Below, piece by piece: positions 2,000 to 6,193 of a DNA stretch of 16,493 nt (its first letter is position 1; every line of letters begins with the position of its first letter). This DNA is from Desulfuromonadales bacterium C00003068 (GTDB taxonomy: Bacteria; Desulfobacterota; Desulfuromonadia; Desulfuromonadales; Desulfuromonadaceae): positions 1 through 16,493 of the forward strand of contig MAXR01000147.1 of the NCBI GenBank assembly GCA_001751155.1. The letters run 5' to 3'. The notes under the pieces are model-generated. The model made no database searches and had not been told where the DNA came from. It saw only the letters and a list, made by a program, of their open reading frames with translations. Position numbers and translations under genes: made by a program.

Positions 2000-3724
2000 T
2001 TACGATGGTGGCAACAACCGCGATTGAGAAGTTGAACTAGTCTGAAAACGTTCCATCAAACGACGTAAATGGTTGGCATGAGCAGCCAACTGCTCAGCAG
2101 AAGCAGCACTCTCCTCAGAGGTCGCTGTAGTTTGCTGAGTAACCTTGTCCATTTGCGTCAAACCCGTACTGATCTGAGAAATTCCCTCAGCCTGTTCGGT
2201 AGATGAAACCGTGATTTCTGAAACCAGATCGGTAATCTTCGCAATACCATTGACAATATTTTCCAACGACACCGCTGTATCATTGGCACACTGGGCACCA
2301 TCTTCCACTTTACTTACCGAATCTTCAATAATCTGTGCTGTTTCCTGAGCTGCTTTCGCACTACGTGCGGCTAAATTTCGCACCTCCTCAGCAACAACAG
2401 CAAATCCCTTACCATGCTGTCCAGCGCGAGCCGCTTCAACTGCAGCATTAAGCGCCAACAGATTTGTTTGAAAGGCAATCTCCTCAATCGTTTTAATAAT
2501 TTTAGAGATATTTTGACTCGATTGGTTGATGGCAACCATCGACTGCACCATCTCCTGCATTTGACTTTGACCTGACTCAGCCTGACTCTTTGTTGTTTCA
2601 GTTAGTGCATTAGCAGCCTTGGCATTGTCAGCATTCGCTCCAGTTTGGCCACTTAGTTCATTTATTGATGCTGAAATTTGCTGCATCGCTGCAGCTTGTT
2701 CGGTGGCCCCCTGCGATAAGCTTTGGCTGGTATCACTCACCTGATCAGCACCATTGGATATCTGTCCTGCAGCGGAATCGATTTCACCAATCACCCCATT
2801 CATATCTGTACACAATTTATTCAGAGCAGTCAGCACCACATCTTCCTGATCACGCGGAGCAACGGTCACACATAGATTTCCCTGAGAAAGTTGCTCAATC
2901 GTTGCAACCACTTCAGTTTCAAGACTCTGAGCTAACTGATCCATACTACGCGCTGTTTCACCAATCTCATCCTGCTGAGTAAGATTCAAACGTTGAGACT
3001 GACGACCAAGGCTGATCTGTTCAATAACTACACGTACCTTTTCCAGTGGTTTTTGCACTAAAGAACCAAGCATCAAATATAAACTAAGTACCGCGAGAAG
3101 GAGGCCAACCACCCCAGTTATCACATTGATTTTAATGCTTGAACGGGTACTTTGCTCGGCAATCGACATCATCTCATTCTTCAACGCATGGACAGTTGAT
3201 AGATCATAATGGACAAACAGTACCCCAGAAAGCTCACCTCGCTTCGCCTTCGTATGGCAACGTAAGCAATCCGACTCCATTAAGTGTGGTTTCGCTAAAT
3301 AGATCGTCTCGCCAACCTCTTGTTCAAAAAGATGACTACCATTACTCACAACATCTGAAAAAAGTTGCTGTTGCAAAACCGTATCAATACTCGCATCGTT
3401 ACTACTGTAGGTGATCTTGCCCGTCGGATCGGTCAATCCGATCTCCAACACCCCTTTCATCTGACCCATGCTGGTCAACAGTTCACTAAATACAAACATC
3501 TCACCGCGCTCAAGAGAACCGACCGTACCCGTCTCAAGGCTGGCAAAGGTATTTTTAGCATTATCCTTACCTGCACTATACAGCGCATCAATAGCTTGAC
3601 TAGAAATCCTATCTAAACTTCGAACACTGGTGCTACCGCTAATCCACGCCGTCGCACTAAACACAAGACATAAACACAGGGCGACTAGAAAACTGACTTT
3701 TGCTCGAATCGTCTTTAATTGCAT
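2000..3724 (-). CDS. Methyl-accepting chemotaxis protein with a periplasmic c-type heme sensor domain
   Basis: A 574-residue transmembrane chemoreceptor. An N-terminal membrane segment (about 10-30) leads into a periplasmic domain (about 31-198) containing a CLRCH heme-c motif at 153-157. A second membrane segment (about 199-221) is followed by a HAMP region (about 222-275), a further HAMP-like stretch (about 276-316), and a long coiled-coil signalling domain. Its hairpin tip EIAFQTNLLALNAAVEAARA (about 415-434) is the CheA/CheW-contacting motif, followed by GKGFAVVAEEVRNLA. No CheR-tethering pentapeptide is seen at the end (LLPPS). A single heme in a periplasmic PAS-like fold is known from Geobacter chemoreceptors (GSU0582, GSU0935), which are thought to sense redox state or small ligands. 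The gene starts 17 bases after the hydrogenase small-subunit stop with its own AGGGGGA site, so it is probably cotranscribed with the hydrogenase. Its direct ligand is not visible from sequence. Confidence 0.95.
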   Translation of the reverse strand: MQLKTIRAKVSFLVALCLCLVFSATAWISGSTSVRSLDRISSQAIDALYSAGKDNAKNTFASLETGTVGSLERGEMFVFSELLTSMGQMKGVLEIGLTDPTGKITYSSNDASIDTVLQQQLFSDVVSNGSHLFEQEVGETIYLAKPHLMESDCLRCHTKAKRGELSGVLFVHYDLSTVHALKNEMMSIAEQSTRSSIKINVITGVVGLLLAVLSLYLMLGSLVQKPLEKVRVVIEQISLGRQSQRLNLTQQDEIGETARSMDQLAQSLETEVVATIEQLSQGNLCVTVAPRDQEDVVLTALNKLCTDMNGVIGEIDSAAGQISNGADQVSDTSQSLSQGATEQAAAMQQISASINELSGQTGANADNAKAANALTETTKSQAESGQSQMQEMVQSMVAINQSSQNISKIIKTIEEIAFQTNLLALNAAVEAARAGQHGKGFAVVAEEVRNLAARSAKAAQETAQIIEDSVSKVEDGAQCANDTAVSLENIVNGIAKITDLVSEITVSSTEQAEGISQISTGLTQMDKVTQQTTATSEESAASAEQLAAHANHLRRLMERFQTSSTSQSRLLPPS

Positions 3725-3741
3725 CGTTTTAGTTCCCCCTA

Positions 3742-4659: not shown

Positions 4660-4693
4660 CCAAGCTCTCCTTGGTCAGCGATAATCGGTTTAA

Positions 4694-6193
4694 TTAGTGG
4701 ATTGCACAAGCAATACAGGGATCAAAAGAGCGAACGATCCGCGCAATTTCGAGGCCCTGATAACTGAGATCAACATCAGTGCCAATCAACGATTGCTCTA
4801 CTGGGCCGAGAGAACCATTTGCGTCACGCGGCGAGAAATTCCACGTACTGGGAACCACATTTTGATAACCACCAATTTTCCCTTTTTCTATCGATATCCA
4901 ATGACCCAAGGCGCCACGAGGTGCTTCAGTAAGGCCCTCACCTTTGCGATCTTTGTTGCCATGGTATTTACCCACCGTCGGCTGACCGGGTTGGAGAGCA
5001 TCGAGCCAACGTTCCATCCGTTGCGCTACCAATAATGATTCCAAAGCGCGGGCTGCATGACGGCCAAGGGCACTGTTGAGTTGTGAACTCTTTAACCCTG
5101 AGCTCTTCAACAAACCAGCAACGGCAGCGGTCACTTCAGTATCCCCTGCGGCACTGGCAACCAGCAATCGAGCTAACGGCCCTACTTCATAAGATTCACC
5201 ATTGTAACGCGGTGCTTTTATCCATGTATAAGCGCCCTCTTTGTGTTGCTGAACTGTTGTTACACTTGCTGAAGGGTGGTCACTTGGCGAGGATTTATAA
5301 TAGGATTTACTGACATCTTCACCAATCAAATCGGTATTTAAAGGACTAAGGACATCGTCCTTAAGAACACCACCTGGCAACCACGTTCCGCTACCCTCTT
5401 GAAAAACGCCATAACTTAAATAACGGGAAACACCGCGACCAATATTTGCATACGCAGGATAAAGACGAGCAACTTCCAAAATATCAGGCAAATAGACTGT
5501 TTCGATAAAACGTTTAATCTTTTTCAAGCGACTACGGAAATTTTCCACCGTTGCCGCATCAACACCGGTCGTCACACCACCGGGCAGTAAGCTCGCTGTA
5601 TGAGGCATTTTGCCACCAAACAGCGCCGCCATACTGTGAGCCTCTTGACGCATATCTAGGGCTTCTAAGTAATGGCCCAAGGCGGTAAGGTTCCACTTTT
5701 TATCTTTAGGGTAATCCCCTTTTGATTTTGGTAGAAAGGGAGCAACGGGAAGGACTCGATTGCTATTTAACTCTTGCTTGGCCCACTCTTGAACTTCGAG
5801 GAGCTTGGCATCACGACCTGTATAGCTGAGAATATCTTCGACATTAATAAAATCGAGTGCCGAGAGTTGATAAAAATGGAGAATGTGACTTTGAAGGTAA
5901 TTAGCACCAAGCACCAAATTTCTCATCATTTTACCATTATCAGGGACAACAATTCCTAAGGCATCTTCTAAACAAAGACTTGAAGCAACCGCATGGCTCA
6001 CGGGACAAACACCGCAAATACGCTGAGTAATAACAGGGGCATCAAAAGGGTCGCGACCGAGCAAAAGGGTTTCAAAGCCACGAAACATCTCCCCTTTACA
6101 CCAGCTATCGACCACCTTGCCATCCTCAATTCGAGTATCAATCCGCAAATGACCTTCAACGCGGGTAAGAGGGTCAATGATGATCTTTGCCAT
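4694..6193 (-). CDS. [NiFe]-hydrogenase large (catalytic) subunit, without a C-terminal maturation peptide
   Basis: This 499-residue subunit holds the Ni-Fe(CN)2CO site that splits or makes H2. MAKIIIDPLTRVEGHLRI is the family start, and ATG 6193 is preceded by AAAGGAG; an in-frame ATG at 6223 adds ten non-homologous residues and is not chosen. The L1 motif RICGVCPVSH spans residues 58-67 and the L2 motif DPCIACAIH spans 491-499. All four nickel ligands are Cys (C60, C63, C493, C496), with TGT codons at the last two and no Sec codon. The stop codon follows H499 immediately, so the C-terminal extension normally removed by a HyaD/HoxM-type protease is absent. That trait is known from H2-sensing (HupV/HoxC) and CooH-type subunits. 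No protease gene is in the window, consistent with none being needed. It is the first gene of the large-small-MCP operon and should be exported in complex with the Tat-signalled small subunit. Confidence 0.96.
   Translation of the reverse strand: MAKIIIDPLTRVEGHLRIDTRIEDGKVVDSWCKGEMFRGFETLLLGRDPFDAPVITQRICGVCPVSHAVASSLCLEDALGIVVPDNGKMMRNLVLGANYLQSHILHFYQLSALDFINVEDILSYTGRDAKLLEVQEWAKQELNSNRVLPVAPFLPKSKGDYPKDKKWNLTALGHYLEALDMRQEAHSMAALFGGKMPHTASLLPGGVTTGVDAATVENFRSRLKKIKRFIETVYLPDILEVARLYPAYANIGRGVSRYLSYGVFQEGSGTWLPGGVLKDDVLSPLNTDLIGEDVSKSYYKSSPSDHPSASVTTVQQHKEGAYTWIKAPRYNGESYEVGPLARLLVASAAGDTEVTAAVAGLLKSSGLKSSQLNSALGRHAARALESLLVAQRMERWLDALQPGQPTVGKYHGNKDRKGEGLTEAPRGALGHWISIEKGKIGGYQNVVPSTWNFSPRDANGSLGPVEQSLIGTDVDLSYQGLEIARIVRSFDPCIACAIH

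What the first reader, a model, noticed from the sequence alone, without database searches (positions are those of the whole stretch)
2000..6193. Candidate H2-responsive chemoreceptor: Tat-exported hydrogenase in one operon with a heme-bearing MCP
Seen: large subunit, small subunit and MCP lie on one strand with gaps of 34 and 17 bases, each with its own Shine-Dalgarno site, then a strong terminator at 1937-1971. The hydrogenase has a Tat signal but no membrane anchor, cytochrome b or quinone module beside it. The MCP has a CxxCH heme site in its periplasmic domain, the same compartment. Known: heme MCPs of Geobacter act as redox or ligand sensors, and large subunits without a C-terminal tail are typical of H2 sensors. 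Inference: H2 oxidation in the periplasm could reduce the MCP heme directly or via a soluble cytochrome, turning H2 availability into a swimming signal. I know of no characterised system with this arrangement.
Basis: partly seen in the sequence, partly recalled or inferred. Interest (0 to 1): 0.85.

Follow-up and report, generated by a model that had tools for sequence, protein, structure and literature searches.

The report
Hydrogenase wired to a chemotaxis receptor
A hydrogen-splitting enzyme exported to the cell's outer compartment is encoded, in many unrelated bacterial groups, together with a (usually heme-bearing) swimming receptor, which suggests that these bacteria use the enzyme to sense hydrogen gas and steer by it.

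Summary
The three genes are as described: large subunit, Tat-exported small subunit and a CxxCH chemoreceptor, one strand, gaps 34 and 17 bases, terminator after. Of 113 large subunits compared, 37 end exactly at the last CxxCxxH and precede the small subunit; with one cut relative they form one clade, and 33 of the 37 are followed at once by an MCP, against 0 of 69 tail-bearing ones. The clade spans Desulfuromonadales, Deferrisomatales, Desulfobacterales, Riflebacteria, Planctomycetes, Verrucomicrobia and Spirochaetia, while other neighbours change. In three loci che genes adjoin. The sensor is predicted to be a single Cache domain with a c heme; a Met about 80 residues before the heme His is kept in 49 of 49 heme-bearing sensors and lost in 3 of 3 heme-less ones, pointing to His/Met ligation as in the Geobacter redox sensor GSU0935. 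Best reading: a [NiFe] hydrogenase dedicated to H2 taxis that reduces its receptor's heme. Electron transfer, H2 response and NO binding are untested, and three planctomycete receptors lack heme. HydDB lists a putative chemotactic [FeFe] class but no [NiFe] one.

The parts
4694..6193 (-). [NiFe] hydrogenase large subunit, 499 aa, no C-terminal extension (stops at CIACAIH)
4697..4717 (-). C-terminal CxxCxxH active-site motif directly followed by the stop codon
3742..4659 (-). small subunit, 305 aa, Tat signal, NiFeSe-type set of cluster ligands, ends soon after the last cluster ligands (no room for a membrane anchor)
4624..4644 (-). twin-arginine motif RRTFLKD of the small subunit
2000..3724 (-). 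methyl-accepting chemotaxis protein, 574 aa: membrane helix, outer sCache-like domain with CxxCH, membrane helix, HAMP, MCPsignal
3254..3268 (-). heme-binding site C153-L-R155-C-H157; Arg155 is shared by all hydrogenase-linked receptors looked at
3497..3511 (-). ERGEM motif; Met76 is the predicted distal heme ligand
1937..1972 (-). intrinsic terminator after the MCP gene
6194..6366 (.). divergent intergenic region between the trio and hypA; one 10/12 sigma-70-like match on the minus strand at 6314-6285; such matches in the region are not above chance (9 against 6.1, sd 2.5)
6367..6708 (+). hypA
6705..9027 (-). hypF, split into two ORFs by an apparent frameshift; identified by reading and by matches of its two pieces to hypF-like ORFs in relatives
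9027..10151 (-). hypE
10214..11311 (-). hypD
11308..11592 (-). hypC
11544..12284 (-). hypB (cobW/HypB/UreG family) with His-rich N-terminus
12490..15056 (+). CbiM-PDGLE, CbiQ, CbiO-type metal uptake transporter (nickel is inferred from the neighbours)

Best explanation
It is an H2-taxis module. SHOWN by sequence: the hydrogenase keeps its active-site and Fe-S ligands, carries a Tat signal and no anchor; the receptor is a transmembrane MCP whose outer domain is predicted to be a Cache fold with a c-type heme site; the three genes are one conserved unit. INFERRED: in the periplasm the small subunit docks on the receptor's heme loop (around Arg155). H2 is split at the Ni-Fe site, electrons run down three [4Fe-4S] clusters and reduce the receptor heme. 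Reduction binds Met76 as second axial ligand and oxidation by the periplasmic redox pool releases it, as reported for a Geobacter heme MCP; this moves the Cache domain and changes CheA activity. The receptor thus reads H2 supply against acceptor supply, and the cell swims along H2 gradients (sign unknown). In the heme-less planctomycete forms the signal would have to pass by direct contact instead.
For: Trio in the same order and strand in 35 loci; 33 of 37 tail-less large-first rows have an MCP next, 0 of 69 tail-bearing and 0 of 4 tail-less Gln-ending ones; one clade of 38 rows. Among 38 loci in 30 groups, large subunit, MCP and small subunit recur in 27, 26 and 22 groups; apart from an unlabelled 10-group cluster whose listed example runs antisense across the small-subunit gene, no other family exceeds 4. 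Gap of -4 between small subunit and MCP in L122, L213 and L052 suggests coupled translation. che genes beside the trio in L052, L074, L076. Sensor kept while the signalling half diverges: L206, L207, L209, L210, L212 sensor 33-39%, signalling 28-31%; L119-L125 sensor 37-45%, signalling 52-58%. Large-subunit and sensor distances track each other over 31 pairs (Spearman 0.69, 0 of 2000 permutations; shared species history also gives this). Cluster ligands 36 of 36 except Asp for Cys55 in two. Met76 in 49 of 49 heme-bearing (30 linked, 19 unlinked) and 0 of 3 heme-less sensors. Arg155 in all 36 linked sensors (33, 3), 0 of 19 unlinked. GSU0935: one heme with His144/Met60; GSU0582 and GSU0935 potentials -156 and -251 mV (passages of PMC8396549), above the H2 couple (recalled, about -414 mV at pH 7). 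The window's genome has CheA (3 hits), flagellin (1) and cytochrome c assembly (3). The three carriers without another strong [NiFe] large subunit (G000, G070, G376) are the three without HycI peptidase, of 22 carriers.
Against: No experiment. Three linked receptors lack the heme (L052, L060, L068). Two large-small pairs with room lack an intact MCP (L203, where only a remnant is left, and the second copy in L043). In L074 a heme-less MCP lies between the small subunit and the heme MCP. The Arg155 contrast rests on 1 supported (3 in all) independent contrasts, so common descent can explain it. Related heme MCPs occur away from this hydrogenase in many genomes of the order, a few of them near another hydrogenase. 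In the window's own genome this is the only [NiFe] hydrogenase found, so it could also feed metabolism. One signalling-associated heme Cache protein has been reported to bind NO (PMC12889525).
Confidence: 0.7

Rival explanations
1. Ordinary uptake hydrogenase feeding periplasmic cytochromes, co-transcribed with an independent heme redox or energy-taxis receptor that reads the shared periplasmic redox pool; no specific contact.
For: Enzyme keeps its catalytic and cluster residues; only [NiFe] hydrogenase found in this genome; a different, tail-bearing hydrogenase of several relatives also has MCPs within about 7 kb.
Against: No cytochrome, membrane or quinone partner recurs next to it; 0 of 69 tail-bearing hydrogenases have an MCP hit within 2.2 kb downstream; 19 of 22 carriers have another strong [NiFe] large subunit; order and partner conserved over many phyla.
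Confidence: 0.2
2. The receptor is a nitric oxide (or O2/redox) sensor and the hydrogenase supplies electrons to keep the heme ferrous and ready, or detoxifies.
For: A 2026 preprint reports tight NO binding by one signalling-associated sCache_heme protein and assigns that role to the fused class (PMC12889525: abstract, Results part 1, NO section and Discussion read).
Against: The authors explain that protein's behaviour by an exchangeable ligand, likely water; here a Met is present at the expected distal place in 49 of 49 heme-bearing sensors. NO gives no reason for a dedicated hydrogenase. The window sensor does not reach the PF11845 cut-off (15.3 vs 24.1 bits), so the finding may not transfer.
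Confidence: 0.08
3. H2 sensing by conformational coupling: the hydrogenase binds the receptor like a periplasmic binding protein and H2 turnover changes its shape; heme is auxiliary. (This shares the H2-taxis conclusion with the best explanation.)
For: Heme lost but trio and Arg155 kept in L052, L060, L068; HoxBC is thought to signal by interaction with the kinase HoxJ (passages of PMC6978683).
Against: Heme site kept in 32 of 35 linked loci, with Met76 in each of them, over deep divergence.
Confidence: 0.15

Closest known systems
[FeFe] hydrogenase group C2, 'chemotactic (putative)' (HydDB, PMC5037454 Table 1, read whole)
   Same: Hydrogenase proposed to sense H2 and act through MCPs
   Different: Different metal centre and protein family; the [NiFe] part of the 2016 table has no MCP-linked class; the link there is also putative
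Regulatory [NiFe] hydrogenases HoxBC/HupUV (HydDB 2b) with histidine kinase HoxJ
   Same: [NiFe] enzyme used as an H2 sensor; lack of a C-terminal extension there is recalled, not from a call
   Different: Cytoplasmic, histidine kinase and transcription output; here Tat signal, Group-1-like, MCP output
Geobacter heme MCPs GSU0582 and GSU0935; Desulfovibrio DcrA
   Same: Outer PAS/Cache-type domain with one c heme; GSU0935 Met60-His144 spacing 84 against 81 here; proposed redox switch
   Different: The word hydrogenase does not occur in the main text of the two Geobacter chemotaxis papers searched; no sequence match of the window sensor to solved chains, only a fold match
sCache_heme / Tll0287-like domains (PF11845)
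   Same: Single Cache fold with CxxCH on a short helix before the last strand
   Different: Below the Pfam cut-off; conserved ERGEM and CxRCH; the word hydrogenase does not occur in the preprint's main text
Periplasmic [NiFe]/[NiFeSe] hydrogenases (HydDB 1a; Desulfovibrio)
   Same: Best sequence matches of both subunits; Tat small subunit; extra Cys at the medial cluster
   Different: No C-terminal tail, large subunit first, MCP as the conserved neighbour

Membership tests
Group 1 periplasmic [NiFe(Se)] hydrogenase | Large subunit with RxCGxC and DPCxxCxxH and Tat-signal small subunit | tested here: met
Group 1 periplasmic [NiFe(Se)] hydrogenase | Cleavable C-terminal extension of the large subunit | tested here: not met
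   stop right after CIACAIH; tail-less in 37 large-first rows
Group 1 periplasmic [NiFe(Se)] hydrogenase | HydDB class assignment | not tested
   the HydDB classifier is not on hand
[NiFeSe] hydrogenase | Selenocysteine (TGA) in DPxxxC | tested here: not met
   the codon is TGT, Cys
Regulatory H2-sensing hydrogenase (group 2b) | No C-terminal extension | tested here: met
Regulatory H2-sensing hydrogenase (group 2b) | Cytoplasmic, no Tat signal, histidine kinase partner | tested here: not met
   Tat signal; partner is an MCP
[FeFe] group C2 chemotactic hydrogenase | [FeFe] H-cluster domain | tested here: not met
   PF00374 protein
sCache_heme (PF11845) | Pfam gathering score | tested here: not met
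   15.3 vs 24.1 bits
sCache_heme (PF11845) | Single Cache fold with CxxCH on a short helix before the last strand | tested here: met
sCache_heme (PF11845) | Covalent heme actually bound | not testable with these tools
   needs protein
MCP | HAMP and MCPsignal domains over cut-off | tested here: met
GSU0935-type redox MCP | His/Met axial ligation | tested here: inconclusive
   Met76 covaries with the heme site, one lineage of loss only; no structure with heme

The most novel reading that the evidence does not exclude
A previously unclassified, multi-phylum class of [NiFe] hydrogenase whose only conserved job is H2 taxis: an exported enzyme that hands electrons from H2 straight to the heme of its own chemoreceptor, a redox wire from an environmental gas to the flagellar motor, with a heme-less branch that signals by contact.
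Probability: 0.55. Interest if true: 0.93.

Novelty: new variant of a known kind. Interest (0 to 1): 0.87.

Why it matters
H2 is a central currency of anoxic life, and swimming towards H2 has been reported for Methanococcus maripaludis (one passage of PMC4266047), yet none of the papers listed or opened here names a [NiFe] receptor for it. This unit gives a testable receptor in genera with cultured members (Geoalkalibacter, Desulfotignum), would add an MCP-linked class to the [NiFe] scheme, and would show an enzyme wired by electrons, not by ligand binding, to a chemoreceptor. Maturation without tail cleavage and a portable H2-to-CheA sensor are side gains.

Tried and rejected
Considered and rejected: (1) chance neighbours: refuted. 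(2) Contaminant contig: the uvrB piece agrees with the genus. But four same-genus loci around uvrB hold none of the cluster, and none of the 13 same-genus or same-family genomes has a match at E 1e-60, so it was gained here or lost there. (3) Truncated gene as the cause of the missing tail: of the 120 listed best protein hits 108 end at the same residue, 11 have a tail, 1 lacks the motif. (4) HoxBC-type sensor: the Tat signal speaks against. (5) Heme loss explained by absence of cytochrome c assembly: the three heme-less genomes each have one PF01578 hit. (6) Clade-specific residues that would mark a docking face on the small subunit: six positions came out, none charged, nothing usable. (7) Sequence match of the sensor to solved heme MCPs: none.

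Literature: ten searches of an open-access library; among the listed titles and abstracts and the passages opened none joins a [NiFe] hydrogenase with an MCP as a unit. One search found 54 papers and listed 20. Subscription journals and most preprints are not in the library. One study is a partial forerunner: its table of genes near [NiFe] large subunits counts 87 MCP-domain genes (cluster 29; PMC12727194, table seen); the words chemotaxis and methyl-accepting occur nowhere else in its main text.
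Full report
What is there. On the minus strand of the window lie a [NiFe] hydrogenase large subunit (4694-6193), small subunit (3742-4659) and an MCP (2000-3724), with gaps of 34 and 17 bases and a strong terminator. The other side carries hypA and, beyond it, hypF-E-D-C-B and a CbiM/PDGLE-Q-O metal transporter. 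The best relatives of both subunits are periplasmic [NiFeSe]/[NiFe] enzymes (NF033181 618 bits over its cut-off of 600; small subunit best match the NiFeSe model, below that model's own cut-off; PDB matches), but the codon at the selenium place is Cys. The small subunit bears a Tat signal and no anchor.

The trio is conserved. The N-terminal part of the MCP has 26 relatives in the protein database; 8 of them lie on contigs of exactly the same length as contigs that hold a relative of the large subunit, a first hint. In the 136 genomes that the tool gave for the order, large subunits at least 55% identical occur at 14 places in 12 genomes, plus a contig-edge fragment in G098 found through its MCP. 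A sample of 395 genomes of the phylum and 80 named loci from a genome collection added more. Mapping by tblastn shows large - small - MCP, same order and strand, in 35 loci including the window. Of 113 large subunits, 37 end exactly at ...CxxCxxH and precede the small subunit; 33 of these 37 have an MCP next. The four others: L126 and L211 end at a contig edge, L203 keeps only a remnant of the MCP start, and L043 has a second hydrogenase without one. Of 69 tail-bearing large subunits none has an MCP next, nor do 4 tail-less ones that end in Gln and follow their small subunit. With at least 1.7 kb of room the figures are 31 of 33 against 0 of 63. In the tree the 37 plus the cut L104 are one side of a branch, 38 rows, SH-aLRT 93. 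Named protein records with the same tail-less form are Geoalkalibacter ferrihydriticus, G. halelectricus and Malonomonas rubra; the neighbours of the first two were not seen. Clustering the neighbours in 38 loci (30 groups), the large subunit recurs in 27 groups, the MCP in 26, the small subunit in 22; one further cluster of 10 groups had no label, and its listed example runs antisense across the small-subunit gene; nothing else exceeds 4.

It belongs to chemotaxis. In a Pirellulales genome (L052) the trio lies next to CheX, a CheY-like receiver and CheA; in Desulfotignum (L074) it is followed by CheA, CheW and a receiver-domain protein; in L076 by CheA, CheW and CheR. The signalling half of the MCP diverges strongly between some loci while the sensor half stays, so what is tied to the hydrogenase is the sensor (L208 is an exception, sensor 25%, signalling 34%). 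Large-subunit and sensor distances are correlated over 31 pairs. A CheA domain is found in 22 of 22 and flagellin in 18 of 22 carrier genomes searched; the window's genome has both.

The enzyme. Active-site motifs and Fe-S ligands are kept over the clade, including the extra Cys at the medial cluster; exceptions are the cut end of L104 and Asp for one proximal-cluster Cys in two of the three partners of heme-less receptors. An electron path to the surface is therefore intact. The large subunit needs no tail removal: of 22 carriers, the three with no other strong [NiFe] large subunit (G000, G070, G376) are exactly the three without a HycI peptidase hit, and the 19 others have both. In the window's genome this is the only [NiFe] hydrogenase seen; its only PF02906 gene is fused to a sigma-54 activator domain and looks regulatory. 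So the hyp genes and probably the metal transporter next door serve this enzyme.

How it probably works. H2 oxidised in the periplasm reduces the receptor heme, directly or through a small cytochrome; Met76 binds on reduction and leaves on oxidation; the Cache domain shifts and CheA activity changes. The enzyme-to-heme step, the H2 signal and the direction of taxis are inferred. The published potentials of related sensors (-156, -251 mV) make reduction by H2 feasible. The heme-less branch shows that the unit can live without this step, so contact coupling is a real rival or an older layer.

Novelty. HydDB's 2016 table, read whole, lists sensory [NiFe] classes 2b (kinase) and 2c (cyclase, putative) and a putative chemotactic [FeFe] class C2, no MCP-linked [NiFe] class. 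Ten literature searches brought no description of this pairing as a unit; one table counts MCP genes among the neighbours of [NiFe] hydrogenases (PMC12727194). It is a sensory hydrogenase of a new design: a new variant of a known kind.

Noticed in passing
window 3-1827 and 6705-9027 (minus): uvrB and hypF are each split into two overlapping ORFs in different frames, most likely assembly errors in this 461-contig MAG.
   Followed up: no
L229 3423-5771 (genome contig C4): An [FeFe]-hydrogenase-like domain fused to a sigma-54 activator and HTH_8: a possible H2- or redox-responsive transcription activator; the four same-genus genomes searched have one PF02906 hit each.
   Followed up: partly
G051 (L132), G073 (L133), G061:C50, G027:C1: A different, tail-bearing hydrogenase of a related family has a relative of the heme MCP sensor within about 7 kb of its large subunit; in L131 and L137 MCPs without a matching heme sensor lie nearby.
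   Followed up: partly
L060 and L068: Heme-less linked receptors go with a small subunit in which Asp replaces one Cys of the proximal cluster; L052 is heme-less with the Cys kept.
   Followed up: partly
L126, L127, L128 (genome G028); L043: One genome carries three copies of the tail-less hydrogenase; a Verrucomicrobia contig carries two hydrogenases and two tandem heme MCPs.
   Followed up: no
   Followed up: partly
P0220, P0228, P0234: The same sensor type with CxRCH occurs in records named Magnetoglobus and Magnetomorum, multicellular magnetotactic bacteria (nature of these organisms recalled).
   Followed up: no
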